A stretch of DNA of 27,071 bases from Alistipes sp. (lineage in GTDB: Bacteria > Bacteroidota > Bacteroidia > Bacteroidales > Rikenellaceae), in NCBI GenBank assembly GCA_017391665.1, contig JAFOXS010000269.1, positions 1 through 27,071 on the forward strand, given 5' to 3'. The notes under the pieces are model-generated. The model had not been told where the DNA came from. It saw only the letters and a list, made by a program, of their open reading frames with translations, and made no database searches. A program made the position numbers and the translations under genes. Positions 2,551 to 15,926 of this stretch are shown here, piece by piece (position 1 is the first letter of the stretch; each line of letters starts with the position of its first letter).

Positions 2551-3477
2551 TTACTCTACAATGCCGATAATATCACTCAGGCGCTCGATGCCCAGACGCT
2601 CCATCTCTAAGGGCAGATCCTCGATGATGCGCTTGCATGCGTAGGGATCCTTCAGATTGGCGGCACCCACCTGCACGGCTGTAGCACCAGCCATCATCAT
2701 CTCTATTACGTCCGAAGCGCTCTCCACACCACCACAACCCATCACGGGAATAGAGCAGGCGTGTGACACTTGATAAACCATGCGTACGGCCACGGGGAAG
2801 ATTGCAGGACCTGAAAAACCACCCATCTTATTGGCGATGACGGGGCGACGACGCTTGGTGTCGATACGCATGCCGAGCAGTGTATTGATCAGACAGATAC
2901 CATCTGCGCCAGCCTCCTCGCACGCCTTTGCAATGGCGACGATGTCCGTTACGTTGGGGCTGAGTTTGATGAATACAGGCTTCGTGGTCACAGCCTTCAC
3001 GGCACGTGTCACCTCGGCTGCCATTTCGGGCTGCGTACCGAAACTCATACCACCATTATGCACGTTGGGGCACGATACGTTCACCTCGATAATTGCCACC
3101 TGATCCTCCTTGTCAACCTTGGCGCAGCACTCGGCGTACTCGTCAATAGAGAAACCGCTGATGTTGGCTACGATAGGCTTGTGGAAAATCTTGCGCAACT
3201 CGGGCAGCTCCCTTGCTACAACTGCATCCACGCCAGGGTTCTGCAGACCAACCGAATTGATCAAACCTGAACGGCACTCGGCGATACGTGGCGTGGGGTT
3301 GCCGAAACGAGCCTCGCGTGTAGTACCCTTTATGGAGATTGAGCCGAGGACGTTAATGTCGTAAAACTCATTGTGCTCGCGGCCAAAACCGAACGTACCA
3401 CTCGCAGGGATGACGGGGTTGTCAAGCTTGACGCCGCACAACTCCACCGACAAATCATATTTCTTATCCATACTCAT
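2551..3477 (-). CDS. pyrD: Dihydroorotate dehydrogenase type 1B, catalytic subunit
   Basis: PyrD oxidises dihydroorotate to orotate with FMN, the fourth step of pyrimidine synthesis. The 308-residue protein has the class 1 catalytic cysteine, Cys136 in NVSCPN, an FMN-barrel start at NPVIPASGTFGFG, the LINSVGLQNPG segment, and the phosphate-binding GCGGVESASDV near the C-terminus. Cysteine in place of serine at the active site and the adjacent pyrK place it in the NAD-linked 1B group (PyrD2K2). It is the last gene of the operon, 4 bases after pyrK, and is followed by a strong terminator. ATG at 3475-3477 is taken as the start; a second ATG two codons in is possible. Confidence 0.96.
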   Translation of the reverse strand: MSMDKKYDLSVELCGVKLDNPVIPASGTFGFGREHNEFYDINVLGSISIKGTTREARFGNPTPRIAECRSGLINSVGLQNPGVDAVVARELPELRKIFHKPIVANISGFSIDEYAECCAKVDKEDQVAIIEVNVSCPNVHNGGMSFGTQPEMAAEVTRAVKAVTTKPVFIKLSPNVTDIVAIAKACEEAGADGICLINTLLGMRIDTKRRRPVIANKMGGFSGPAIFPVAVRMVYQVSHACSIPVMGCGGVESASDVIEMMMAGATAVQVGAANLKDPYACKRIIEDLPLEMERLGIERLSDIIGIVE

Positions 3478-3481
3478 CTCC

Positions 3482-4222
3482 TTACCAAATTATCTCTTCA
3501 CGTTTCATTACGGGGCCCTCCTTACAGATGCGTTTGTTGCCCGTCAAGGTCTTGCAGCTGCAACCCATGCAAGCACCAAAACCGCAACCCATACGCTCCT
3601 CGAACGAGAGTTCGCCCTTTACATCGGTGCAGTCACACAGCGCCTTAAGCATAGGCAACGGGCCGCACGAGTAGAAGTAGTCGAAGTCGATACCATTCTC
3701 GCGGATGGCATCCGTTACGAAGCCCTTGGTGCCCAGCGAGCCGTCAGCCGTAGATACATATACATCTACGCCCAGCGCACGGAACTCCTCGGCATAGAAT
3801 ACCTCCTTTGAGGTGTTGAAGCCAAGCACTACGCTCACCTTGCGACCACGTGCTATGAGCTCCTTTGCCAAGCGGTAGAGTGGGGGAACACCTACGCCAC
3901 CGCCCACAAGCAGAGGCTTCTGGCACTCCACATCGGCATCGAAACCATTGCCAAGACCTGTGAGCACATCCAACTGCTCGCCTGCCTGCATGTGGCTCAT
4001 CTGCTCGGTGCCACGACCTACAACCTTATAGATGATGGTGATAGTCTCCTCGTCCCAGTCGTTGATTGAGATGGGGCGACGCAGATACAAGCCCTCCAGC
4101 TCAATGTTTACGAACTGTCCCGGGCGAGTGATCCACTGCGTATCACCAGCAAGCACCATCCGCCACACGTCAGAGGTTAGCGGATGGTTTTGCTTGATTG
4201 TGTATATTCCTTTTTTGTACAT
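3482..4222 (-). CDS. pyrK: Dihydroorotate dehydrogenase electron-transfer subunit
   Basis: PyrK passes electrons from the PyrD flavin through a [2Fe-2S] cluster and FAD to NAD. In the 246-residue form starting at ATG 4220-4222, the FAD motif RRPIS is at 48-52, the nucleotide-binding LLVGGGVGVPPL at 104-115, and cluster cysteines Cys213, Cys218, Cys221 and Cys233 fit the C-x4-C-x2-C-x11-C pattern of the family. I prefer this start to an in-frame ATG at 4247-4249. It begins 1 base after the carB stop, and the resulting N-terminus (MYKKGIYTI) matches family length. The gene lies between carB and pyrD, its obligate partner. Confidence 0.95.
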   Translation of the reverse strand: MYKKGIYTIKQNHPLTSDVWRMVLAGDTQWITRPGQFVNIELEGLYLRRPISINDWDEETITIIYKVVGRGTEQMSHMQAGEQLDVLTGLGNGFDADVECQKPLLVGGGVGVPPLYRLAKELIARGRKVSVVLGFNTSKEVFYAEEFRALGVDVYVSTADGSLGTKGFVTDAIRENGIDFDYFYSCGPLPMLKALCDCTDVKGELSFEERMGCGFGACMGCSCKTLTGNKRICKEGPVMKREEIIW

Positions 4223-4223
4223 T

Positions 4224-7200
4224 TTACTTGCCGTCGATGGTTGAAACACCCAATGTGATCTCCTCCAATACGTTAAGCAGTACGCTCACGGTCTCGAGCG
4301 AAGTGAACAGCGTAACGTTGTTCTCGGCTGCTGCGCGACGAATCTCATAACCGTCACGACGTGTGCTGTGCTGGTTTACGTCGATAGTGTTGATAACGTA
4401 TGTAACGTGACCCTTGCGCAACTCGTCGTAAATCTCGGTTGAGCCCTCGCTGATCTTGAGCAGGTGGCGTGTACGGATGCCATTGTTGCGCAGGAACTCG
4501 CAGGTTCCGCCCGTAGCCTCGATGTTGAAGCCGAGGTCGTAGAAACGGCGGATGAAGGGCAGAGCACGCTCCTTGTCAGCGTCGGCAATCGTTACGAAGA
4601 TCGTACCGTAGTTAGCTACGGCTACGCCCGACGACTGCAATGACTTATAGAGTGCGCGGTTAAGGCTTACATCGTAACCGATAGCCTCACCTGTTGACTT
4701 CATCTCGGGAGAGAGGTATGAGTCTACACCGCGAATCTTTGCGAATGAGAATGCGGGTGACTTAACGAACCAGCGGGTGCTCTCCTTGCCGTAGATCTCC
4801 GTAATACCCTGCTCGCGGAGTGAGTGACCGAGGATAACCATTGTGGCGATCTTTGCCATAGGCACACCAGTTGACTTCGAGAGGAACGGAACGGTACGTG
4901 ATGAACGGGGATTAACCTCGATAACGTATACCTTCTCCTGCTCGTCCACGATAAACTGGATATTGAACAGACCGATGATGCCGATAGCCAAGCCCAACTG
5001 ACGGGTGTACTCGATGATGGTATCCTTCACCTGCTGGCTTACGCTGAAGGTGGGATATACGCTGATTGAGTCACCAGAGTGGATACCTGTACGCTCAACG
5101 TGCTCCATAATACCGGGGATGTATACATCCTTGCCGTCGCAGATAGCATCTACCTCCAACTCCTTACCCTGGATATACTTGTCAACCAATACGGGCGACT
5201 TCTCGTTGATCTCTACAGCCGAACGCAGGTAGTGGCGAAGAGTCTCCTCGTTGGCTACGATCTGCATGGCACGACCACCAAGCACGAAGCTGGGACGAAC
5301 CAGTACGGGGTAGCCGATGTCGTTGGCAGCCTCAACACCCGACTCGATGTCGGTAACGGCCTTTGCCTTGGGCTGGGGAATACCAACCTCGTTCATGATG
5401 CGCTCGAAGCACTTGCGGTCCTCGGCGTTGTTGATAGCCTCGATGCCTGTGCCGATGATCTTCACACCCAGGTCAGCCAAAGGCTCTGCCAGGTTGATGG
5501 CGGTCTGACCACCGAGTGATACGACAATACCCTCGGGCTGCTCCAGCTCAACAACATTCATCACATCCTCAACGGTCAGAGGCTCGAAGTAGAGCTTATC
5601 GCTGATGGTGTAGTCCGTAGATACGGTCTCGGGGTTATTGTTGATGATGATAGCCTCATAGCCAGCCTCCTTGATTGTCCAGATAGCGTGTACGGTCGAG
5701 TAGTCGAACTCCACACCCTGGCCGATACGGATAGGACCCGAACCGAGTACAAGGATCTTCTTGCGGTCGCTGCGTACTGACTCGTTCTCTGCCTCATAAG
5801 TAGAGTAGAAGTAGGGAACATATGTGTCAATCTCGCCAGCGCAAGAGTCTATAATCTTATATACGGGGAATACACCCTCGGCCTTGCGCAACTGATACAT
5901 CTCAGCCTCCGACATGCCCCACAACTGACCGATGAACTTGTCGCTGAAACCCATACGCTTCGCCTCCTTCAGGGTAGCGATGCAGCCCTTGTTTGCAGAG
6001 ACAACCTTCTCCATCTCGACGATGTTCTTCAACTTCTCGAGGAACAACATATCGATCTTGGTGTGGTTGTAGATAATCAGAAGATCAACACCCTTGCGGA
6101 TAAGCTGAGCGATGGCGTAGATGCGATCGTCGGTACCCTTGCGGATGTAGTCCAGCATCTGTGCTGAGCTCCAGTCGTCGAATTTCTTGTTGTGGATATG
6201 GCAAACGCCAGTCTCCAGCGAACGGATAGCTTTCAGGATACCCTCCTCGATGGTGCGGCCGATGCTCATCACCTCGCCCGTAGCCTTCATCTGCGTGCCG
6301 AGCTCATTCGATGCGTCGCTAAACTTATCGAAGGGGAAGCGGGCAACCTTCAGTACCACGTAGTCCAACGCAGGCTCAAAGCATGCGGGACGATCAGAGA
6401 TCATAATCTCATCAAGAGTCAAGCCTACGGCGATCTTGGCTGTTACGCGAGCGATGGGGAAACCGCTGGCCTTCGACGCCAGAGCCGATGAACGCGATAC
6501 GCGGGGGTTAACTTCGATGATGTAATATTTGAATGAGAGGGGATCGAGTGCAAACTGAACGTTGCAACCACCCTCAATCTTAAGCTCACGGATAATCTTC
6601 AGAGCGCTGCCACGCAGTAGCTGATACTCCTTGTCTGTGAGGGTCTGAGCGGGTGCGATAACCATAGAGTCACCGGTGTGGATACCTACGGGGTCGATGT
6701 TCTCCATGCTACAGATGGCAATCGCGGTGTCGTTCTTGTCACGCATCACCTCGAACTCGATCTCCTTGTAGCCCTTGATACTCTTCTCTACGAGTACCTG
6801 GTGTACGGGCGAGAGAACCAGTGCGTTACGCATAATCTCACGCAACTCCTCCTCATTGTCGGCAAAACCACCACCAGTACCACCCAATGTAAATGCAGGG
6901 CGAAGCACTACGGGGTAACCGATCTCCTCGGCAGCCTTCACACCATCCTCCATAGAGTTCACAACAACTGAAGGAAGCACGGGCTCACCGATACGGATAC
7001 ACAGATCCTTGAAGAGCTCGCGGTCCTCAGCCTCCTCGATACTCTTGAACGATGTGCCCAGAATCTCAACGTGGCACTCATCCAGAATGCCCTTCTTTGC
7101 AAGCTGTACGGCAAGGTTCAAACCTGTCTGACCACCCAGGCCGGGAACGATGGCATCGGGACGCTCGTAGCGTACGATCTTTGCCACATACTCCAGCGTC

Positions 7201-7406
7201 AAAGGCTCCATGTAAACCTTATCGGCGATGTTGGTGTCGGTCATGATAGTTGCGGGGTTAGAGTTCACGAGAATAACCTCGTAACCCTCCTCCTTAAGTG
7301 CCAAGCACGCCTGTGTACCTGCATAGTCAAACTCTGCGGCCTGACCGATGACAATCGGACCTGAACCGATCACCATCACTTTCTTTATATCTGTTCTTCT
7401 AGGCAT
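4224..7406 (-). CDS. carB: Carbamoyl phosphate synthetase, large subunit
   Basis: CarB makes carbamoyl phosphate from bicarbonate, ammonia and two ATP. At 1060 residues it is close to the 1073 of E. coli CarB and keeps the duplicated layout: a first ATP-grasp half (about 1-400) with PGLGGQTGLNLA and RPAFTLGGTGGG, an oligomerisation segment, a second half with KILVLGSGPIRIGQGVEFDY and SLGGQTAINLA, and a C-terminal MGS-like allosteric domain (about 935-1060). Nothing looks degraded in either synthetase half. It overlaps carA by 8 bases (ATGCCTAG) and is followed after 1 base by pyrK, so all three are translationally packed. Since the partner CarA has lost its catalytic cysteine, this subunit probably receives ammonia directly. 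Confidence 0.97.
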   Translation of the reverse strand: MPRRTDIKKVMVIGSGPIVIGQAAEFDYAGTQACLALKEEGYEVILVNSNPATIMTDTNIADKVYMEPLTLEYVAKIVRYERPDAIVPGLGGQTGLNLAVQLAKKGILDECHVEILGTSFKSIEEAEDRELFKDLCIRIGEPVLPSVVVNSMEDGVKAAEEIGYPVVLRPAFTLGGTGGGFADNEEELREIMRNALVLSPVHQVLVEKSIKGYKEIEFEVMRDKNDTAIAICSMENIDPVGIHTGDSMVIAPAQTLTDKEYQLLRGSALKIIRELKIEGGCNVQFALDPLSFKYYIIEVNPRVSRSSALASKASGFPIARVTAKIAVGLTLDEIMISDRPACFEPALDYVVLKVARFPFDKFSDASNELGTQMKATGEVMSIGRTIEEGILKAIRSLETGVCHIHNKKFDDWSSAQMLDYIRKGTDDRIYAIAQLIRKGVDLLIIYNHTKIDMLFLEKLKNIVEMEKVVSANKGCIATLKEAKRMGFSDKFIGQLWGMSEAEMYQLRKAEGVFPVYKIIDSCAGEIDTYVPYFYSTYEAENESVRSDRKKILVLGSGPIRIGQGVEFDYSTVHAIWTIKEAGYEAIIINNNPETVSTDYTISDKLYFEPLTVEDVMNVVELEQPEGIVVSLGGQTAINLAEPLADLGVKIIGTGIEAINNAEDRKCFERIMNEVGIPQPKAKAVTDIESGVEAANDIGYPVLVRPSFVLGGRAMQIVANEETLRHYLRSAVEINEKSPVLVDKYIQGKELEVDAICDGKDVYIPGIMEHVERTGIHSGDSISVYPTFSVSQQVKDTIIEYTRQLGLAIGIIGLFNIQFIVDEQEKVYVIEVNPRSSRTVPFLSKSTGVPMAKIATMVILGHSLREQGITEIYGKESTRWFVKSPAFSFAKIRGVDSYLSPEMKSTGEAIGYDVSLNRALYKSLQSSGVAVANYGTIFVTIADADKERALPFIRRFYDLGFNIEATGGTCEFLRNNGIRTRHLLKISEGSTEIYDELRKGHVTYVINTIDVNQHSTRRDGYEIRRAAAENNVTLFTSLETVSVLLNVLEEITLGVSTIDGK

Positions 7407-8487
7407 TTTGTTTCTCCTCCATCAGTTTAATGAATTTATCGAAAAGGTATGCGCAATCCTGCGGACCCGGAGCACTCTCGGGGTGGAACTGCAAAGCATA
7501 CATCTTATCCTCTGCGCACTCAATACCCTCGATCGTTGAGTCAAATACGTTCTCGTGAGTTGCAACGAGCGATGTGCCCTCCAACGACTCGGGAACGATA
7601 GCGTACTCATGGTTCTGTGAGCCCATGTCGATGCGACCTGTTGCAAGTGTGCGAACAGCCGACGAGCCGTGATGACCACACTTCATCTTGTAAACCTTTG
7701 CGCCGTATGCAAGAGCGATGAGCTGCATACCGAGCGAGATGCCGAACATAGGAATCTTACCCTTTGCCTCGCGAATCAAATTAATCACCTCGTGCAACTC
7801 CTCGGGTGAGCCGGGGCCATTTGAGATGAACAGACCATCGGGGTTGAAGGCCATGATCTCCTCCAATGAGGTGTTGTATGGTACAACGGTTACGTTGCAG
7901 CCACGGCTTGTGAACGAGCGGATGATGTTGTGCTTGATACCGCAATCTACGGCTACGATGTCGTACTTGTGGTTGGGTGTACGTGAGAACCATGCCTTGC
8001 GGCTGCTCACCTTAGCCACCAGGTTGGTGGGCTGGGGTGTGTTCTTGATCAGCTCCAGAGCAGCCTCTGTCGTTGTGTCGATGTTAACGATAGCTGCGCG
8101 CTGTGCGCCCTCGTCGCGGATGATGCGAACAATCATGCATGTGTCAACACCTGCAATGCAAGGAATGCCAGCCTCCTCCAGTGTCTCCGAGAAGGTCTTG
8201 GTGTAGCGGAAGTTTGAGGGGTTCTCGTTGCACTCACGCACTACCATACCGCCAATCTGCGGAGTCTTCGACTCGAAGTCCTCGTCAGTGATGCCGTAGT
8301 TACCAATCAAAGGGTAGGCCATCACTACAATCTGATTGCTGCATGATGGATCGGAGAGAATCTCCTGATAACCCACCACAGAAGTGTTGAAAACGATGTC
8401 GTAGGCACGCTCCACGTTGGCGCCATAGCCATAGCCGAGGAACTCGCGACCGTTCTCAAGAACTAACTTTTTAGTAAATGGTTTCAT
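7399..8487 (-). CDS. carA: Carbamoyl phosphate synthetase small subunit with Cys-to-Ser glutaminase site
   Basis: CarA normally hydrolyses glutamine and channels ammonia to CarB. This 362-residue copy has both domains: the N-terminal CPSase domain (to about 150, with DPSCSNQ and AYPLIGNYG) and a class I glutamine amidotransferase domain (about 174-360, with DCGIKHNIIR and SNGPGSPEE). The nucleophile elbow reads FGISLGMQ, not the usual FGICLGHQ: Ser251 (codon TCG, 7735-7737) replaces the catalytic cysteine and Met254 the following histidine. The glutamine-site motif reads QNHEYAI, with glutamate at a normally invariant glycine, and the usual GNHPV segment reads SSAVR. His335 and Glu337 of the triad remain. 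Mammalian CPS1 has the same Cys-to-Ser change and uses ammonia, so loss of glutaminase activity is a fair inference. It lies 24 bases after pyrC and overlaps carB by 8 bases. Confidence 0.95.
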   Translation of the reverse strand: MKPFTKKLVLENGREFLGYGYGANVERAYDIVFNTSVVGYQEILSDPSCSNQIVVMAYPLIGNYGITDEDFESKTPQIGGMVVRECNENPSNFRYTKTFSETLEEAGIPCIAGVDTCMIVRIIRDEGAQRAAIVNIDTTTEAALELIKNTPQPTNLVAKVSSRKAWFSRTPNHKYDIVAVDCGIKHNIIRSFTSRGCNVTVVPYNTSLEEIMAFNPDGLFISNGPGSPEELHEVINLIREAKGKIPMFGISLGMQLIALAYGAKVYKMKCGHHGSSAVRTLATGRIDMGSQNHEYAIVPESLEGTSLVATHENVFDSTIEGIECAEDKMYALQFHPESAPGPQDCAYLFDKFIKLMEEKQNA

Positions 8488-8511: not shown

Positions 8512-9783
8512 TTATCTCTTTTCGTACGCAATTTTGCCGTCCACAAGTGTCAGACAGCACTCGCCCTGCAACTCCCAGCCCTCGAACGGAGTGCTGCGGC
8601 CCATAGTAAGGAATGTTGAGGGATCGACCATGTAACTCTTCTCAAGATCAAATACCGCAATGTCGGCGGCCTCACCCTCCTGAAGTGCTCCGCCCAGGCC
8701 AAAGATGCGGCGCGGTGCCTCGGCCAATACCTCGATAGCCTTCTCAAGAGAGATGATGCCCTGCTTGACGAGCTTTGTGTATATTACGGCAAATGATGTT
8801 TCCAAACCTACAACGCCCATTGCGCTGAGCTCCAGTCCGCGTGACTTCTCATCGGCGGTGTGGGGTGCATGATCTGTTGCTACCACGTCGATAGTACCAT
8901 CCTGCAAGCCAGCAACAAGAGCATCGCGATCCTCGGCCGAACGAATCGGGGGATTCATCTTGAAACGACCATTCTCCTGCAGATCCATATCGCACATGGT
9001 AAGGTAGTGGGGACCTGTCTCGCAGGTGATCTTCACGCCACGTTTTTTCGCCTCACGAATCAGCGCTACGCTCTCCTTTGTTGAGATGTGGCATACGTGA
9101 TAACGGCAACCGGTCTTTGCTGCAAGCTCAATGTCGCGCTCAATCTGTGCCCACTCGCTCTCGGAGCAGATGCCGCGATGACCATGCTTGTGGGCATACT
9201 CGCCATCGTGGATATAGCCCTTGCGCAGAAGCTCGTTCACCTCGCAGTGTGCTGCAATGATTCCGTCGCACTTTGCTGCCTCATACATAGCTGCCTGCAT
9301 AACCTCGCCACTCTGCACGCCAGAGCCATCATCCGAGAAGCCTGCAACGTAGGGCTTGAGCGATGGGAAATCTACCAACTCGTCGCCACGACGTTTGCGA
9401 GTGATTGTGGCGTAGGGCAGAACCTTAACTACGGCGTCACGCTTGATGATATCTATCTGCTGCTGCAGATTCTCCATTGTGTCGGGTGCGGGCTCAAGGT
9501 TGGGCATTGAGCATACGCAAGTAAAACCTCCGTGTGCTGCGGCTGCCGTACCTGTAGCGATGGTCTCCTTGCGAGAGAAGCCAGGCTCACGCAGGTGAAC
9601 ATGCAGATCGACAAGACCCACGGTGATGATCTTATGCGAGCAATCAAAAACCTTATCTTCTTTAGAAGGAACAATCTCGGGTGCAATGCGCTCAATCACA
9701 CTGCCGCAAACGGCCACATCGGCCTTTGTCTGCTTGCCATCGCGCACGATTGTGCCACCCTTGAGAATGATTCTTGTATCCAT
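8512..9783 (-). CDS. pyrC: Dihydroorotase
   Basis: PyrC interconverts carbamoyl-aspartate and dihydroorotate, the third pyrimidine step. It is an amidohydrolase-fold zinc enzyme. The metal ligands are visible as LVDLHVHLREPG near the N-terminus, then FSDDGSGV, AAHCE, HVCHIST and VATDHAPHT towards the C-terminus. The FSDDG segment marks the class with aspartate where class II enzymes have carboxylated lysine. The usual PG before the first metal motif is VG here. Three in-frame ATGs compete: 9819, 9792 and 9783. I chose 9783 because MDTRIILKGGTIV matches family N-termini and the first ATG would place the leader hairpin inside the coding region. It is the first enzyme gene of the operon and sits directly behind a probable attenuator. 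Confidence 0.93.
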   Translation of the reverse strand: MDTRIILKGGTIVRDGKQTKADVAVCGSVIERIAPEIVPSKEDKVFDCSHKIITVGLVDLHVHLREPGFSRKETIATGTAAAAHGGFTCVCSMPNLEPAPDTMENLQQQIDIIKRDAVVKVLPYATITRKRRGDELVDFPSLKPYVAGFSDDGSGVQSGEVMQAAMYEAAKCDGIIAAHCEVNELLRKGYIHDGEYAHKHGHRGICSESEWAQIERDIELAAKTGCRYHVCHISTKESVALIREAKKRGVKITCETGPHYLTMCDMDLQENGRFKMNPPIRSAEDRDALVAGLQDGTIDVVATDHAPHTADEKSRGLELSAMGVVGLETSFAVIYTKLVKQGIISLEKAIEVLAEAPRRIFGLGGALQEGEAADIAVFDLEKSYMVDPSTFLTMGRSTPFEGWELQGECCLTLVDGKIAYEKR

Positions 9784-9792
9784 ATCTATCAT

Positions 9793-9816
9793 AAAAAAGG
9801 CGACCAAACAGTCGCC
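9793..9816 (-). terminator. Probable attenuator directly before pyrC
   Basis: On the minus strand, GGCGAC and GTCGCC form a perfect 6-bp GC-rich stem (9799-9816) with a six-base loop, followed at once by six T residues (9793-9798). This is a textbook intrinsic terminator, but it precedes the pyrC start instead of following a gene. It begins 6 bases after the stop codon of the leader ORF at 9823-9948, close enough for a ribosome at that stop to block the hairpin. Confidence 0.75.
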
Positions 9817-9822
9817 CATATA

Positions 9823-10049: not shown

Positions 10050-13000
10050 TTAGAATACGATGCGTGCTCCAATCTGCATGTGCCAGCGTGAGAGCAGATC
10101 GCTGGGCGAAATTTCGGCTCCCGTGAAACGATATACGGCCTGTCCATCCTCTGCGGCCGAGATAGTTACGGGCTGCAGACGCACGTTTGAAACGTTGTAA
10201 TATGCTCCCCAATGGCGGCAAAGCAGGTTGCCCAGGTTCATTACGTCGAGCGAAAGCTCTACCTTGCGGCCGCTCGCTGCTCCGAAGTAGAAGCCGTGTG
10301 CCAGATGCAGGTCGAGGCGATGCTCCATGGGAGTCTGCATGGCGTTGCGCTCGGCAAATGAGCCGCGATGTGTACTGAGATATGCATTATCCTCGATATA
10401 GTTGTTCCACTTTTCACGAGATGTGTCATCGGCAAAGAGCATATTCTGCATCTCCGACTCGGTGGGAATATACATCAGTGTTGAGCCGAACGTTCCGTCG
10501 CCATTGAAATCCACCGCCTCGCCAAAGCAGTAGGAGTAGCGCTGTCCCGATGTAGCCTGATATACCAGCGAAGCGCTAAGGTCGAATAGCGGCGAGTAAC
10601 GCTTGTTGTAATTTACGGCGAGCGAAACCTTGTGAGGAACGTCGTATGCTGAGAATGTCAGCTCGGGGTTGTTCAGGTCGAGGGCATAGGTGCGATTCCA
10701 GTTGCTCGACGATGAGGTCGAGGGGACGTCGCACACAGCGTAAGAGTGTCCGAAGATGTAGGATGCCATAACCGACAGACCCCACTCAAAGCTCTTTGAT
10801 ACGCTGCCCGAGAGCGAGTATGAGTAGCCGCGAGATGTATTGTCGAGATAATATACGGCCGAATAGTCGGTCGTAGCCGTGCGATATGCGGGTAGAGCCG
10901 ATGCTTCCGCACCCTTGACGGTGTATATCTTCTCGCCCGTGGGCTCGATGGCCAAATTCTTAAATACGGCATTGTGCAGAGTCTTTGTGTAGAGTGCCTC
11001 GGCACGCAAAGTCCAGCCGTTGTTGGATGTGTATGAAACCGCGGCACTTGCCTTCAGGTTCTGAGGATAGCGGAAGTGGCGGTTCATGGCGTTGAGCATG
11101 AATTGAGTGTTGGATTGCGAAGTGGGCGAGGGCTTCACCGAGAAGTTAGCTGCCGGCTTTACAATCTGGCCGCCATCGCTTGTGGCCGTCAGGCGCAGAC
11201 CCTTCTGCTCGACACCAGTATTGGAGTAGTTGTTGACAATCCATACGAATGGAATCTGACCTGTGAATACTCCTACACCTCCATCGATCGTGAGCTGGCC
11301 ATGATCGTAGTTGCGCATCCACGTAACGCCGATGCGTGGCGAGATGAGCAGTTGTGCACGGGGAACATCGCCGATGCGTATGTTGTGCTCGTGGGCGATT
11401 GCTCCGTTGTTGAACTCCTCGTTTGCTGTGGGGGAGTTAAAGATAAGTGGCAGGGTGGCACGCACACCATAAGTAAGGTGCAGGCCTCGGCCCAGAGCCC
11501 AACGATCCTGCGCATAAAGATTTAACTCGGCGGCACGGAACTTCGGCCCCCAGGTCGTTGACCCCGTTACGTTGGGATCTGTGTAGTTATATTCGTAGAG
11601 CGATGCGAGATCATTCTCAAAGTCGGCTACCGAGTTGTAGGTATATGTACCATAAGAGTTGGCCAGATAACGGTTGTGGATGTCGTAGAACTCATGGTGC
11701 ATGCCGAGAGTTATGGAGTGTGAACCACGCTCCATGATAAGATCGTCGGTTAGGGTTACTACATTTTGAGTCAGGTCGTTAATGCCAGCGTAGCGGTTGT
11801 TTCCAATGTTGATGGCTACACCTCCCGTAGTACCGGCATGGCGGATGATAACACTCGGCAGATCGCCCCCTACATCGGGCTTGCGGCCATCGCCCACGCG
11901 TGAGTAACCTATGCGCAGCGAGTTGTGTGTATGATCCGACAGACGTGACTCCAAAGCCAGAGCCAGATAGTGTGCCGTACTGTAGTTGGCATATCCCGAA
12001 CCGTTGAATGTAAACGAAGAGAGTGAATTACCATACTCTTCGGCTCGAGCATCAAGATATGAATAGCTCGCCGAAAGACGGTTGCGAGAGTTTATATGCC
12101 AATCCAGAGTGGCAAGCAATGAGCCTGAGCGCTGTGCAACATTGCGGCGTTCCGTGCCACCACCATCGTAGCCAGTAAGGGCCTTGTAACGATCGGAGAT
12201 ACGCTGCAGCTCCGCACCATCGAGGAGCGCACCATTGTAGCCAAGATAATATGACGATGGAGATGCCTCGTGATTAAACTCTCCACTGAGGAAGAAGAAT
12301 AGCTTGTTTTTGATGATTGCTCCACCCAGCGTAGCACCATAGATCTGTGTCGATTGATTCTCCAGCTTCTTGCGCTCGGCTACGTTGCGACCTGCCGTTG
12401 TGCCGTAGAAATTGTGATCGTTGTAGTATGTGTAGGCGCTGCCCTTGAATTCGTTGGTGCCCGATTTTGTGATGGCGTTGATTGCACCACCGCCAAAACC
12501 GCTCATTCTTACGTCGTACGATGCAACGACAACCTCCAGCTGCTCGATAGCATCCAGGGCTATGGGGTTGGCATTCGAGAGGCCTCCATTTGTGCCTGAT
12601 GACGACAGGCCATACATATCGTTGTTGGCCATGCCGTTGATCATGAATTGGTTATAGCGGTTGGCTACGCCACCGTATGACATTCCGCCACTCTTCGTTG
12701 CAACGGCTTGCGGCATAAGACGTACCACATCGTATAGTGAGCGCGATACAGATGGCATCTGCGATATGAGACTTTCGTCGAATTTGCTGGTCATCTGGCT
12801 CGACTGCACCTGTTCGGCGGTGACTACTACGGCATCCAGCGTGGTTGATTGTCGGAGCACGACATCTTCCGTGTGCATATCTCCTACGCGGAGCGTTATG
12901 CCTTCGCGGCGCACTCTTTCACAACCGACATAACTCACCTCCAGAATATATCCGTCCGATGGGCGAATGCCATGCAGTGAGTAGCGACCTTGCACGTCAG

Positions 13001-13172
13001 CCACGACAGCATACTCGCTGCCCGTTGTGGGGTGCGACAATATGACGGTTGCGCCGACTAACTTTTCCTGGGATTGATTGGTGACAACACCGCTCAGCGA
13101 AGCGGTGGTAATTTGCGCGAAGGCGCTATATATACATAGTAATGCCGTAATCAGGCATATAAGTCTCTTCAT
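10050..13172 (-). CDS. TonB-dependent outer membrane receptor, Oar-like
   Basis: This is a 1040-residue outer membrane receptor. A signal peptide (1-19, cleavage after AFA) is followed by a carboxypeptidase-regulatory-like domain (about 23-107), a possible TonB box at LDAVVVTAEQ (112-121), a plug domain (about 125-245), and a large beta-barrel ending MQIGARIVF with the terminal Phe used for outer membrane assembly. These receptors take up or release substrates with energy from TonB. The plug contains NPIALDAIEQLEVVVASYD and GAINAITKSGTNEFKG, the style of Oar/Cna-B-like receptors. No SusD-like lipoprotein is next to it, so it is not a SusCD glycan pair. It is a single-gene unit, divergent from yqaA. 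The substrate cannot be predicted. Confidence 0.92.
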   Translation of the reverse strand: MKRLICLITALLCIYSAFAQITTASLSGVVTNQSQEKLVGATVILSHPTTGSEYAVVADVQGRYSLHGIRPSDGYILEVSYVGCERVRREGITLRVGDMHTEDVVLRQSTTLDAVVVTAEQVQSSQMTSKFDESLISQMPSVSRSLYDVVRLMPQAVATKSGGMSYGGVANRYNQFMINGMANNDMYGLSSSGTNGGLSNANPIALDAIEQLEVVVASYDVRMSGFGGGAINAITKSGTNEFKGSAYTYYNDHNFYGTTAGRNVAERKKLENQSTQIYGATLGGAIIKNKLFFFLSGEFNHEASPSSYYLGYNGALLDGAELQRISDRYKALTGYDGGGTERRNVAQRSGSLLATLDWHINSRNRLSASYSYLDARAEEYGNSLSSFTFNGSGYANYSTAHYLALALESRLSDHTHNSLRIGYSRVGDGRKPDVGGDLPSVIIRHAGTTGGVAINIGNNRYAGINDLTQNVVTLTDDLIMERGSHSITLGMHHEFYDIHNRYLANSYGTYTYNSVADFENDLASLYEYNYTDPNVTGSTTWGPKFRAAELNLYAQDRWALGRGLHLTYGVRATLPLIFNSPTANEEFNNGAIAHEHNIRIGDVPRAQLLISPRIGVTWMRNYDHGQLTIDGGVGVFTGQIPFVWIVNNYSNTGVEQKGLRLTATSDGGQIVKPAANFSVKPSPTSQSNTQFMLNAMNRHFRYPQNLKASAAVSYTSNNGWTLRAEALYTKTLHNAVFKNLAIEPTGEKIYTVKGAEASALPAYRTATTDYSAVYYLDNTSRGYSYSLSGSVSKSFEWGLSVMASYIFGHSYAVCDVPSTSSSSNWNRTYALDLNNPELTFSAYDVPHKVSLAVNYNKRYSPLFDLSASLVYQATSGQRYSYCFGEAVDFNGDGTFGSTLMYIPTESEMQNMLFADDTSREKWNNYIEDNAYLSTHRGSFAERNAMQTPMEHRLDLHLAHGFYFGAASGRKVELSLDVMNLGNLLCRHWGAYYNVSNVRLQPVTISAAEDGQAVYRFTGAEISPSDLLSRWHMQIGARIVF

Positions 13173-13865: not shown

Positions 13866-14438
13866 ATGAGAAAAATTCTACTTCTATTGCTGGCTGTGAC
13901 AGCATTTATCGCCAAGAGCGATGCCCAGGTCGTTGGTATTAAGACCAATCTCGTACAGTGGGCAACCGTATCACCCAATCTGGGTGTGGAGATAGGCTTG
14001 GGTAAGCAGACAACCCTCGATATCTCGGCAGGATTCAATCCCTTCAAATTCTCTCACGACCGTCAGTGGCGCCACTGGATGGTGCAGCCCGAATTCCGCT
14101 GGTGGACATGCGAACGATTCAATGGTCACTTCCTCGGAGCGCATCTGCTGGGTGGAGGTTTTAATGTGGGCAATCTCTCGTTCTTTCCCTTTAGTATGTG
14201 GGATGGACTGGAGAATAACCGCTACAAAGGCCATGCCCTGGGTGCTGGTCTTACCTACGGTTACGCATGGATGCTGGGCAAGCATTGGAATCTCGAAGCG
14301 CAGGTTGGCGTAGGCTATGCCCATGCGTGGTACGACCAGTATAATGGCGAGGGGTATAATACCCTGGTGCGTTCGGATGCGAATAAAAACTATTGGGGCT
14401 TGACAAAGCTCGCCATCTCATTTGCCTATCTATTCTAA
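13866..14438 (+). CDS. DUF3575 outer membrane protein
   Basis: This 190-residue secreted protein has a signal peptide (1-20, SDA then Gln) and a short beta-rich body with aromatic-rich strands, such as HWMVQPEFRWWTCERF and a C-terminal LAISFAYLF that looks like a barrel end. It matches the DUF3575 pattern: VGIKTNLVQWATVSPNLGVEIGLG near the start and GAGLTYGYAWMLGKHWNLEA later. DUF3575 genes are recurrent in Bacteroidetes fimbria-type loci, usually beside a DUF3868 protein as here. The next gene follows after 12 bases. No clear promoter is visible in the 103-base gap upstream. The exact role is not established; a small outer membrane barrel helping surface assembly is an inference. Confidence 0.82.
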   Translation: MRKILLLLLAVTAFIAKSDAQVVGIKTNLVQWATVSPNLGVEIGLGKQTTLDISAGFNPFKFSHDRQWRHWMVQPEFRWWTCERFNGHFLGAHLLGGGFNVGNLSFFPFSMWDGLENNRYKGHALGAGLTYGYAWMLGKHWNLEAQVGVGYAHAWYDQYNGEGYNTLVRSDANKNYWGLTKLAISFAYLF

Positions 14439-14450
14439 AATCGTAAACTT

Positions 14451-15926
14451 ATGAAGCAGATTTACAAATATCTTTTTGCCGCAGGCTTTGCATGTTGTGC
14501 GGCCACAGGCGCTGTGGCGCAGAGCGTCGTAACGACTAATGGTGTGATGGTGAGCGATATTGCCATCGTGCCGCATGACGATCGCGTGAATGTGGATATG
14601 TTGTTCGATATGAGCGATTTGCGTGTGCGGTCCAACTACTCGTTGCAGATCACACCAATACTTACCAATGGCCGTGAGATGGTGCAGTTGCCACCCGTTG
14701 TGATTGATGGCCGCCGTCGCTCGATAGTGCATAAGCGCCAGGATAGCGATCTATATGAGAGTATAAAGACTTATGTGCGTCGTCATAATAACAAGGATCA
14801 GGTGATGGAGTACGATGCCGACATCCCCATGGAGCAGTGGATGATGGATTCGGAACTGATACTGAAGGAGGAGTGGTGCAGTTGCCACGATATCCCTTTG
14901 AGTGAGGAGTTGGTGGCAGTAGCAACGGTTTCGGAGCCTGCCGCAGTACCATCGACGCCCAGTGAGGAGCAGACACTGCCGCAACCGCAACAAAGCGAGA
15001 ATCTATCACCCCGCATGGCTTATGTTATGCCTGCGGCAAGTAGCGAACAGAGTGTGATGGGCGGCATGGATATCTATTTTGCCGTGAATAAGAGCGATGT
15101 AAATGCTTCGTTTATGGATAACGGCGAGGAGATGAAGACGGTGGCAGAGACTCTTTCGCAAGGTGGTGTAAGCAAGATTCATCTTATGGGTTATGCTTCG
15201 CCCGAAGGACCCTATGAGTTTAATAAAAAGCTGGCTGCGCGACGTGCCGAGGCGGTGAAGAATTATCTTGCGAGTCACAATTTGAGTAAGGATATTACGG
15301 TGATCAGCGATTCGTCGCCAGCTAACTGGGACGAGGTGAAACGTATGTTGGGTGAGACTTTTATCGAGAATTGGCGTGGAATAGTAGCCATCATTGATGA
15401 TCCTGCGATTGCGCCAGCCGACAAGAACGGTGCTATACGTAAGAAGTATCCCGTTGAGTACGATTTCATGCTTACGACATGGTATCCCAAGTTGCGCGTT
15501 ACGGAGATTAGTGTTGAGTGTGCACCCAAGCGTCACACCGTTGAGCAGGCGAAGACCCTGATTGAGAGTGCCCCGTCAGAGCTCTCGCTCGAAGATATCT
15601 ATATGGTGGCACTGACTTATGATAAGGGTAGTAAGGAGTGGAATGAGATTATACTCTTTGCCGTGGAGCGTTTTCCGCTCTCGCCCGAGGCTCGTGTGAA
15701 TGCTGCCAACGTAGCGATGGCAAATGGTGATTATGATCTTGCAGCGGAGTATCTGCAGGGTGTGCCGGCAAATATGCCACAGGCAATCAATTCGCGCGGA
15801 ATCCTGGCTATGTCGCAAGGTAATTACGGCGAGGCGATGACGCTATTCCAGCAGGCCGAGCAGGATGGCGTAAGTGAGGCGTCGTACAATATAAGTTTGC
15901 TTAAAGAGTTGATTCAGGCACAGTAG
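14451..15926 (+). CDS. DUF3868 protein with OmpA-like and TPR regions
   Basis: This is a 491-residue envelope protein. A signal peptide (1-23, cleavage AVA then Gln) precedes a DUF3868-like domain (about 24-145), a Pro/Glu/Gln-rich linker (about 160-190), an OmpA-like peptidoglycan-binding domain (about 203-355, with HLMGYASPEGP at 244-254 and the NKKLAARRAEAVKNYL helix), and a C-terminal TPR-like part (about 365-490) with a PEARVNAANVAMANGDYDLA repeat. This order is found next to Mfa/FimA-type fimbria genes in Bacteroidetes, where it is thought to anchor surface structures. It is in one operon with the DUF3575 gene and ends at a strong terminator shared with the convergent lipoprotein gene. 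No pilin lies beside it here. Confidence 0.82.
   Translation: MKQIYKYLFAAGFACCAATGAVAQSVVTTNGVMVSDIAIVPHDDRVNVDMLFDMSDLRVRSNYSLQITPILTNGREMVQLPPVVIDGRRRSIVHKRQDSDLYESIKTYVRRHNNKDQVMEYDADIPMEQWMMDSELILKEEWCSCHDIPLSEELVAVATVSEPAAVPSTPSEEQTLPQPQQSENLSPRMAYVMPAASSEQSVMGGMDIYFAVNKSDVNASFMDNGEEMKTVAETLSQGGVSKIHLMGYASPEGPYEFNKKLAARRAEAVKNYLASHNLSKDITVISDSSPANWDEVKRMLGETFIENWRGIVAIIDDPAIAPADKNGAIRKKYPVEYDFMLTTWYPKLRVTEISVECAPKRHTVEQAKTLIESAPSELSLEDIYMVALTYDKGSKEWNEIILFAVERFPLSPEARVNAANVAMANGDYDLAAEYLQGVPANMPQAINSRGILAMSQGNYGEAMTLFQQAEQDGVSEASYNISLLKELIQAQ

What the first reader, a model, noticed from the sequence alone, without database searches (positions are those of the whole stretch)
7735..7737. 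CarA has serine at the catalytic cysteine of its glutaminase site
The nucleophile elbow reads FGISLGMQ where class I amidotransferases have GICLGHQ. Codon TCG (7735-7737) cannot come from TGC or TGT by a single-base error. Three further signature positions differ: His to Met after the elbow, Gly to Glu in the QNHGF-type glutamine-binding motif (here QNHEYAI), and the GNHPV segment (here SSAVR). The catalytic His335 and Glu337 remain. Mammalian CPS1 has the same Cys-to-Ser change and is ammonia-dependent, and a serine nucleophile in the E. coli enzyme abolishes glutamine use while leaving ammonia-driven synthesis. The inference is that this organism makes carbamoyl phosphate for pyrimidines from free ammonia, which is plentiful in the gut, and that CarA has become a structural subunit. 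CarB looks fully intact.
Basis: partly seen in the sequence, partly recalled or inferred. Interest (0 to 1): 0.75.

Follow-up and report, generated by a model that had tools for sequence, protein, structure and literature searches.

The report
Gut bacterium's nucleotide enzymes lost glutaminase
An uncultured gut bacterium has lost the glutamine-splitting site of its pyrimidine-starting enzyme, and its relatives repeatedly lost the same kind of site in up to four nucleotide-making enzymes, which suggests they build nucleotides from free ammonia.

Summary
CarA (window 7399-8487, minus strand) reads FGISLGMQ, with Ser251 (TCG, 7735-7737) where the glutaminase cysteine belongs. It is no error: 19 clade sequences tabulated, the window's included, have Ser (16) or Ala (3), and the nearest Cys-bearing relative listed is only 71% identical.

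It is not isolated. In this Alistipes-like genus 42 of 57 CarAs read lack the cysteine, against 0 of 65 read elsewhere in the order. The CarA and CarB trees need at least 7 and 5 changes of state, and one Cys-less clade is rejected on CarB (AU p 9e-6). The gene stays under purifying selection. CarB keeps catalytic and gate residues and changed in parallel within residues 201-400.

In the window's own MAG three more nucleotide amidotransferases have lost glutaminase features: PyrG (Cys to Gly, His to Asn), GuaA (most of the amidotransferase domain gone) and PurF (only a Cys-less paralogue found). PurL and HisH keep theirs. Short GuaA is one tight clade found in three lineages, so it probably spread horizontally.

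Best reading: CarA is now a structural subunit, and free ammonia feeds nucleotide synthesis. Loss of the sites is shown by sequence; ammonia use is inferred and untested.

The parts
7399..8487 (-). carA, carbamoyl-phosphate synthase small subunit, 362 aa, glutaminase cysteine absent
   Evidence: ORF; TIGR01368 422.8 bits, cut-off 307; PF00988 and PF00117
7735..7737 (-). codon TCG of Ser251, the position of E. coli Cys269
7723..7746 (-). nucleophile elbow FGISLGMQ (residues 248-255)
7651..7680 (-). CGHHGSSAVR (residues 270-279), replacing the FGHRG..NHPV-type segment; E. coli tunnel residue Gly293 is Ser275 here
   Evidence: role of Gly293 from PMC4655335 (passage)
7597..7617 (-). QNHEYAI (residues 291-297), glutamine-binding segment
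7477..7491 (-). QFHPE (residues 333-337), catalytic His335 and Glu337 still present
8089..8466 (-). N-terminal CPSase small-chain domain, the more strongly conserved half in this clade
   Evidence: PF00988 residues 8-133; dN/dS 0.066 over residues 1-150
7426..7953 (-). class I amidotransferase domain, recognised by its model, active site lost
   Evidence: PF00117; dN/dS 0.126 over residues 176-362
4224..7406 (-). carB, large subunit, 1060 aa, overlaps carA by 8 bases
   Evidence: NF003671 1499.9 bits; aligned to E. coli CarB over residues 1-1037
6654..6713 (-). CarB Cys232 to Ala251 (two ammonia-gate residues of E. coli); the third gate residue is Ala313 at 6468-6470
   Evidence: gate residues of CPS1 from PMC4655335 (passage), their E. 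coli numbers recalled
6609..6635 (-). CarB residues 258-266: Asp258 and Gly266, where all 55 Cys-bearing rows have Asn and Asp
6459..6461 (-). CarB Phe316, Tyr in 55 of 55 Cys-bearing rows
8512..9819 (-). pyrC, dihydroorotase, upstream neighbour
   Evidence: TIGR00857 399.4 bits, cut-off 279
3482..4249 (-). pyrK, dihydroorotate dehydrogenase electron-transfer subunit
   Evidence: NF000799 258.6 bits, below its cut-off of 314; PF10418 over cut-off
2551..3477 (-). pyrD, dihydroorotate dehydrogenase
   Evidence: NF005574 435.7 bits, cut-off 269

Best explanation
CarA here is a small subunit without glutaminase activity. It stays in the CarAB complex as a structural, possibly gating, partner, and CarB makes carbamoyl phosphate for pyrimidines from free ammonia, bicarbonate and two ATP, as animal CPS I does for urea. 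This is one part of a shift seen in several Alistipes-like (Rikenellaceae) lineages, in which glutamine-splitting sites of up to four nucleotide enzymes (CarA, PyrG, GuaA, PurF) were lost while those of PurL and HisH were kept. A plausible setting is an ammonia-rich hindgut. Shown by sequence: loss of the catalytic residues or domains, their recurrence in separate lineages, continued purifying selection, intact CarB catalytic sites, parallel change in CarB, and one tight clade of short GuaA in separate lineages. Inferred: the direction of change (loss), that free ammonia is the donor, that CarA is structural, and that ambient or self-made ammonia drives it.
For: CarA: in 19 window-clade sequences the position is Ser in 16 and Ala in 3, and the catalytic His is Tyr in 4. 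In the genus 42 of 57 CarAs lack Cys. In the rest of the order 65 of 65 CarAs read keep it.

Separate origins: at least 7 changes on the CarA tree built without active-site columns (87 rows) and at least 5 on the CarB tree (53 rows chosen of 105); one Cys-less clade is rejected (dlnL 309, AU p 8.7e-6). The PurL tree puts the short-GuaA genomes in three supported places.

Function kept: dN/dS in the window clade is 0.066 in the N-domain and 0.126 in the amidotransferase domain. The dN ratio between the domains is 2.15, against 1.23 in Cys-bearing relatives. CarB R129, R169, E215 and C232 are kept in 105 of 105 rows and A251 in 100 of 105.

CarB coupling: N258, D266 and Y316 are invariant in 55 of 55 Cys-bearing rows and changed in 7, 7 and 6 of 8 Cys-less groups. 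The excess of change sits in residues 201-400 (64 against 24 group-changes; elsewhere 139 against 127).

Same genome: PyrG has Gly for Cys and QYNPE for QYHPE, GuaA is 435 aa without most of the domain, and the only PurF-like gene found is Cys-less. HisH keeps GICVGMQ in 8 of 8 window-clade genomes read and PurL keeps GICNGFQ.

Association: all 23 short-GuaA genomes with a CarA read are Cys-less, and 22 of the 23 lack PyrG or have a broken PyrG site.
Against: Nothing biochemical is shown. E. coli CPS needs very high ammonia, called likely physiologically irrelevant in PMC6245113 (passage), so an adaptation or a high internal ammonia level must be assumed. Glutamine synthetase is present in 18 of 18 genomes, and PurL and HisH still look glutamine-dependent, so glutamine is neither absent nor given up.

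The CarB signal is weaker than it looks. E. coli CarB, a glutamine enzyme, itself has Asp258 and Phe at the 316 position, so these residues are no mark of ammonia use. The 201-400 division was drawn after seeing the sites, 6 Cys-less groups were set against 5 Cys-bearing ones, and with 5 independent pairs no single site can reach p 0.05.

In one subclade (15 genomes, Asp or Gly in CarA) PyrG (14 of 14 found) and GuaA (13 of 13 found) look normal, as does PurF in the two read. G050 carries a Cys-less CarA, a second CarA with GICLGNQ, and normal PyrG, GuaA and PurF. G039 has a short GuaA but an intact PyrG elbow. A protein labelled Tidjanibacter (P0066) keeps Cys. The genomes are mostly unnamed MAGs, and the window's own is 80% complete.
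Confidence: 0.8

Rival explanations
1. Ser251 acts as a serine nucleophile, so CarA is still a glutaminase.
For: His335 and Glu337 remain in the window protein.
Against: The position is Ala in 3 of 19 clade sequences and the catalytic His is Tyr in 4 of 19. Related lineages have Asp, Gly or Asn, in several with the His replaced as well. PMC4655335 explains the inability of human CPS1 to use glutamine by Ser at this place, while noting that other factors may add to it (passage).
Confidence: 0.04
2. A dedicated but unrecognised glutaminase in the same cell supplies ammonia to CarAB and the other enzymes, so glutamine is still the ultimate donor.
For: Glutamine synthetase is present in 18 of 18 genomes. 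NAD synthetase has two-subunit forms with a separate glutaminase (PMC3376133, abstract and passages).
Against: The PF00117 search found only CarA, PyrG, GuaA and HisH in the window's MAG, G014 and G015, and CarA, GuaA and HisH in G001. Glutaminases of other folds were not searched.
Confidence: 0.08
3. CarAB is decaying and the organism lives on salvaged pyrimidines.
For: In 11 of 23 short-GuaA genomes no PyrG was found, so some nucleotide steps are being lost.
Against: dN/dS is about 0.07-0.13. All CarA frames extracted from genomes are 353 aa or longer except one copy cut by a contig end. CarB catalytic residues are invariant, and pyrC-carA-carB-pyrK-pyrD lie next to each other in the window.
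Confidence: 0.05
4. The losses are resistance to glutamine-mimicking antimetabolites that attack the catalytic cysteine, with ammonia use as a by-product.
For: Several cysteine-type glutaminase sites are lost together.
Against: PurL keeps its cysteine in 16 of 16 loci from 15 genomes and HisH keeps it; that PurL is a prime target of such compounds is recalled. GuaA lost most of a domain, and PurF in G034, G020 and G039 keeps Cys but lost the Arg of the glutamine site (role recalled), which such resistance would not need.
Confidence: 0.05
5. Assembly artefact, or a second functional CarA missing from the incomplete MAG.
For: The MAG is 80% complete; G050 has two CarAs.
Against: The same state occurs in many assemblies, and three clade members 92-96% complete have a single CarA.
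Confidence: 0.03

Closest known systems
Carbamoyl phosphate synthetase I (animal CPS1, ammonia-dependent)
   Same: Ser in place of the nucleophile cysteine; amidotransferase-like domain kept as an inactive part; the tunnel residue equal to E. coli Gly293 is altered in both (Gln in CPS1, Ser here).
   Different: Here it is a bacterial two-subunit enzyme among pyrimidine genes. CPS1 is one chain, needs N-acetylglutamate and serves urea (PMC4655335 and PMC6022934, passages).
Bacterial CPS II (E. coli CarAB)
   Same: Both subunits, domain order, and CarB catalytic and gate residues.
   Different: No catalytic cysteine. [quoted passage not shown]
E. coli CarA with FGISLGHQ in PDB (1c30, 1c3o)
   Same: Best PDB sequence match; same Ser at the same place.
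   Different: That is a laboratory mutant (recalled); this is natural and shared by a clade.
NAD synthetase, ammonia-dependent and glutamine-dependent forms
   Same: One family with forms with and without glutaminase, and horizontal transfer (PMC3376133, abstract and passages).
   Different: There the ammonia form is judged ancestral; here ammonia use would be derived from glutamine-dependent ancestors, repeatedly and in several enzymes.
GMP synthase (GuaA); archaeal two-subunit form (recalled)
   Same: The ATP-pyrophosphatase part passes TIGR00884.
   Different: Most of the amidotransferase domain is missing, and no separate subunit was found by PF00117 in the window's MAG.

Membership tests
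Glutamine-hydrolysing CPS small subunit (TIGR01368, CPS II) | CPSase small-chain domain followed by a class I amidotransferase domain | tested here: met
Glutamine-hydrolysing CPS small subunit (TIGR01368, CPS II) | catalytic Cys-His-Glu triad | tested here: not met
   Cys is Ser251; His335 and Glu337 present
Glutamine-hydrolysing CPS small subunit (TIGR01368, CPS II) | glutamine-dependent activity | not testable with these tools
   needs enzyme assay
Bacterial CarAB complex | partner CarB with both ATP-grasp domains and conserved catalytic and gate residues | tested here: met
CPS I (ammonia-dependent) | nucleophile cysteine replaced | tested here: met
CPS I (ammonia-dependent) | glutaminase-side ammonia tunnel blocked at the Gly293 position | tested here: inconclusive
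   Ser here; in 19 clade sequences Gly 11, Ser 7, Cys 1
CPS I (ammonia-dependent) | single fused chain | tested here: not met
   separate carA and carB
CPS I (ammonia-dependent) | N-acetylglutamate as essential activator | not testable with these tools
   needs enzyme assay
Glutamine-hydrolysing GMP synthase | class I amidotransferase domain with Cys-His-Glu | tested here: not met
   PF00117 matched only at 1-76 of 190, elbow motif not aligned
Glutamine-hydrolysing CTP synthase (PyrG) | catalytic Cys and His of the amidotransferase domain | tested here: not met
   FFGVGLGMQ and QYNPEY in the window's MAG
Glutamine-dependent PurF | N-terminal catalytic Cys with Arg and Asn-Gly of the glutamine site (roles recalled) | tested here: not met
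   the only PurF-like gene found begins MSGFFGCVS and lacks the Arg and the Asn-Gly; it scores 191.5 on TIGR01134, below the cut-off of 350

The most novel reading that the evidence does not exclude
Several Rikenellaceae lineages have independently moved nucleotide synthesis from glutamine to free ammonia. CarA lost its glutaminase at least five times with parallel remodelling of CarB near the ammonia gate; native GuaA was replaced by a horizontally spread GuaA without most of its glutaminase domain, or cut down to the bare synthase a second time; and PyrG and PurF lost their glutaminase residues or, for PyrG in some lineages, disappeared. This would be a bacterial counterpart of CPS I used for pyrimidines, inside an ammonia-fed nucleotide economy.
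Probability: 0.6. Interest if true: 0.9.

Novelty: new variant of a known kind. Interest (0 to 1): 0.82.

Why it matters
PMC6245113 extends glutamine as the physiological donor to all bacterial carbamoyl phosphate synthetases (passage). Natural, repeated conversions to a glutaminase-free form offer replicate experiments on how an ammonia-channelling enzyme learns to take ammonia from outside, the question asked of animal CPS1. The parallel CarB changes name residues to test. The coupled losses in four enzymes suggest that a whole branch of metabolism can change its nitrogen donor in ammonia-rich guts. It also warns annotators: where such proteins bear a source name, most are called glutamine-hydrolysing.

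Tried and rejected
Sequencing or strain error: rejected, since relatives share the state.

A single origin of Cys-less CarAB: rejected by the CarB tree (AU p 8.7e-6), which agrees with the PurL tree. For GuaA the opposite holds: the short form is one tight clade across three lineages. The change counts cannot tell gain from loss; loss is my inference.

Lack of glutamine synthetase as the cause: rejected, 18 of 18 genomes have it.

GlmS replaced by NagB running in reverse: only suggestive. The 9 of 15 genomes without a GlmS hit all have NagB-family genes, and the two without NagB have GlmS, but 4 of the 6 GlmS-bearing genomes have NagB too.

A second CarA in G054 suspected (L159) proved to be TrpG with Cys.

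CarB parallel sites: one planned Cys-bearing control group came out empty, so 6 Cys-less groups were set against 5. The region totals used a reference that included the control groups, and the 201-400 division came after seeing the sites. Over 5 independent pairs sites 258, 266, 316 and 524 went with Cys loss in 4.2, 4.5, 2.9 and 4.3 on average and never against it; no site can reach p 0.05. At 258 and 316 E. coli has the residue of the Cys-less window protein.

Rows: the CarA tree used 87 of 259 sequences aligned; the CarB tree 53 of 105 (55 wanted, L074 and L085 not in the alignment). P0023 looks like a mixture of two lineages and may be chimeric; it was left in, as was L111 (very long branch); the partial copy L112 was left out. 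dS near 1 makes dN/dS rough, and pairs with dS over 1.5 in either domain were dropped. In one search two columns labelled G241 and G243 were off by one residue and are not used.

Not counted: four genomes (G018, G031, G037, G043) of 61 gave no CarA. In the order sample 67 of 129 genomes matched; one is the window's own and one a fragment (G109) that I did not fetch, leaving 65 read. The 62 without a match were not examined further. In the class sample a few other GuaA frames are under 500 aa (G281, G304, G212, G316, G194, G322), perhaps cut by contig ends; not examined.

Full report
WHAT IS THERE. The 362-aa ORF at 7399-8487 (-) is CarA. It lies in the order pyrC-carA-carB-pyrK-pyrD on the minus strand. 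The elbow reads FGISLGMQ, with Ser251 coded by TCG at 7735-7737. His335 and Glu337 are still there. In E. coli numbering the changes are C269S, H272M, F288C, G293S, G313E and F314Y. The G313 change is not informative, because Cys-bearing relatives have Ser or Asn there. The best PDB match is the E. coli small subunit of 1c30, which carries the same Ser.

NOT AN ERROR. The window belongs to MAG G000 (1.97 Mb, 356 contigs, 80% complete), in which one CarA was found. The nearest named records are Alistipes sp. MAGs from yak colon and caecum, roe deer rectum and cattle caecum, at 87-98% identity. In 19 CarAs of this clade, the window's included, the position is Ser in 16 and Ala in 3; the catalytic His is Tyr in 4, and the glutamine-binding Gln273 is Glu in 8. 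Two database proteins in the clade have Gly and Glu. The nearest listed Cys-bearing protein is P0028 at 71%.

HOW WIDE. In 61 genomes sampled from the genus, 57 gave a CarA. Fifteen have Cys and 42 do not: Ser or Ala in the ten window-clade genomes; Asp or Gly in a 15-genome subclade, whose 13 Asp members all have Gln for His353; Gly in G050; Gly in a six-genome group nested among Cys-bearing Alistipes; and Ser, Asn or Gly in a further ten. Four MAGs labelled Tidjanibacter (L060-L062, L072) have Gly, while one protein so labelled (P0066) has Cys; one uncultured Rikenellaceae record (L055) has Ser. As a control, CarA was read in 65 genomes of other families of the order (about 59 families): 65 of 65 keep Cys.

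SEPARATE ORIGINS. On a CarA tree of 87 rows built without the active-site columns the fewest Cys changes are 7. On a CarB tree of 53 rows they are 5, and forcing the Cys-less rows into one clade costs 309 log units (AU p 8.7e-6). Cys-bearing rows are sisters of several Cys-less groups (L097, L053, L071 with L107, and G045/G054 and kin). The PurL tree, an independent marker for 15 genomes, gives the same separate lineages. That these are losses, not gains, is inferred.

STILL SELECTED. In the window clade dN/dS is 0.066 in the N-terminal domain and 0.126 in the amidotransferase domain. The dN ratio of the two is 2.15, against 1.23 in Cys-bearing relatives, 1.57 in the Asp subclade and 1.91 in the G039 group. 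The amidotransferase half is thus relaxed relative to the other half, but not free. CarB keeps R129, R169, E215 and C232 in 105 of 105 rows and A251 in 100 of 105; Ala314 is kept in the window protein.

CARB CHANGED TOO. Asn258, Asp266 and Tyr316 are invariant in 55 of 55 Cys-bearing rows and changed in 7, 7 and 6 of 8 Cys-less groups; Ser524 (51 of 55) is changed in all 8. Over 713 testable sites the excess of change in Cys-less groups is confined to residues 201-400: 64 group-changes against 24, while the rest of the protein has 139 against 127. Three cautions: 6 Cys-less groups were set against 5 Cys-bearing ones, the division was drawn after seeing the sites, and E. coli CarB, a glutamine enzyme, has Asp258 and Phe at position 316 like the window protein. 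On five independent pairs sites 258, 266, 316 and 524 went with Cys loss in 4.2, 4.5, 2.9 and 4.3 on average and never against it, too few pairs for p 0.05. The stretch holds the gate residues C232, A251 and A314. PMC4655335 (passages) says that in human CPS1 the way from the old glutaminase site is blocked before this gate and that ammonia could enter by another path. Whether the CarB changes do something similar cannot be told without a structure.

THE REST OF THE PATTERN. In the window's MAG, PyrG has Gly for the catalytic Cys and Asn for the catalytic His. GuaA is 435 aa with most of its amidotransferase domain gone but passes TIGR00884. The only PurF-like gene found is a paralogue beginning MSGFFGCVS, without Cys1, Arg or Asn-Gly of the glutamine site; it scores below the PurF cut-off, so its reaction is itself an inference. 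G014, G015 and G001 show the same. HisH keeps its Cys in 8 of 8 window-clade genomes read and PurL in 16 of 16 loci from 15 genomes. In the other short-GuaA lineages PurF lost the Arg of the glutamine site (G034, G020, G039) or both Cys and Arg (G057, G030, G006). Of 23 genomes with short GuaA (one in fragments) and a CarA read, all 23 lack the CarA cysteine. For PyrG in the same 23: in 11 no gene was found, 7 window-clade genomes have lost Cys or His or both, 4 have Asn or Gly for Cys, and 1 (G039) looks normal. Of 26 genomes with full GuaA, 25 have PyrG with Cys and in 1 none was found. The remaining 8 of 57 gave no GuaA or only a fragment. Full-length GuaAs keep their cysteine in 27 of 27 genus loci read.

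SHORT GUAA MOVES. The 21 short GuaAs in the tree form one tight clade, far from the 8 native full-length ones, although their genomes sit in three places on the PurL tree, which holds 10 of them. In a class-wide sample the 435-type (85% identity or more) was seen only in G000 and in G165, of another family, where it lies next to a full-length copy (143 of 149 genomes matched). In the family sample (86 of 91 matched) ten genomes have the 435-type, one more has it in two fragments, and one (G384) has a 338-aa relative as well as a full copy. Six of genus g235 have a different GuaA of about 340 aa with no amidotransferase domain at all, and a seventh (G415) may. GuaA has therefore probably lost the domain at least twice. 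CarA of those other genera was not read.

MECHANISM. Shown by sequence: loss of the residues or domains that split glutamine. Known: such enzymes can use ammonia directly, at very high concentration for E. coli CPS (PMC6245113, passage). Inferred: the cell supplies enough ammonia, and CarA is kept because CarB needs its partner. Glutamine itself can be made, since glutamine synthetase is in 18 of 18 genomes.

WHAT IS KNOWN. Ammonia-dependent CPS is known as CPS I of animals (PMC4655335, PMC6022934; passages). For bacteria PMC6245113 states glutamine as the donor. I searched for bacterial cases, for combined loss in these enzymes, and for Alistipes or Rikenellaceae. In the listings shown (20 of 26, 20 of 49, the rest in full) I saw no report of such a case. 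This covers open-licence PMC papers only.

VERDICT. Enzyme assays are the missing step.

Noticed in passing
genomes G005, G008, G020, G024, G027, G030, G031, G034, G037, G047, G049, G057, G058 (also G001, G044): No CTP synthase (PF06418) found in 15 of 61 genus genomes, 8 of them over 90% complete; how they obtain CTP is unexplained.
   Followed up: partly
L471 (G165:C66:22000-31000): A genome of another family in the order has a short GuaA (87% identical to the window MAG's) right after a full-length GuaA, a possible donor lineage.
   Followed up: partly
L472-L477 (genus g235): GuaA of about 340 aa starting just before the ATP-pyrophosphatase motif, amidotransferase domain wholly absent; a second kind of loss. 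Whether a separate subunit exists was not tested.
   Followed up: partly
L111 (G050:C9:227378-229018): A genome with a Cys-less CarA also has a second, Cys-bearing CarA at 37-39% identity.
   Followed up: partly
G000, G014, G015, G001, G020, G034, G057, G041, G056: No GlmS found, NagB-family genes present; glucosamine-6-phosphate may also be made from ammonia.
   Followed up: partly
L167 (G014 PyrG): The match to PyrG is split near residue 40 by a frame change, perhaps an assembly error.
   Followed up: no
window 10050-13172 (-): 1040-aa outer-membrane beta-barrel protein with carboxypeptidase-regulatory and plug domains, no NCBIfam match.
   Followed up: no
window 13866-15926 (+): DUF3575 protein followed by an OmpA-like protein, opposite to the pyr genes.
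   Followed up: no
P0013, P0020, P0025 (CarA); P0159, P0166, P0173, P0182, P0210, P0219, P0225, P0232 (GuaA): Of the Cys-less CarA and short GuaA entries that bear a source name, 2 of 3 CarAs and 8 of 8 GuaAs are called glutamine-hydrolysing.
   Followed up: no
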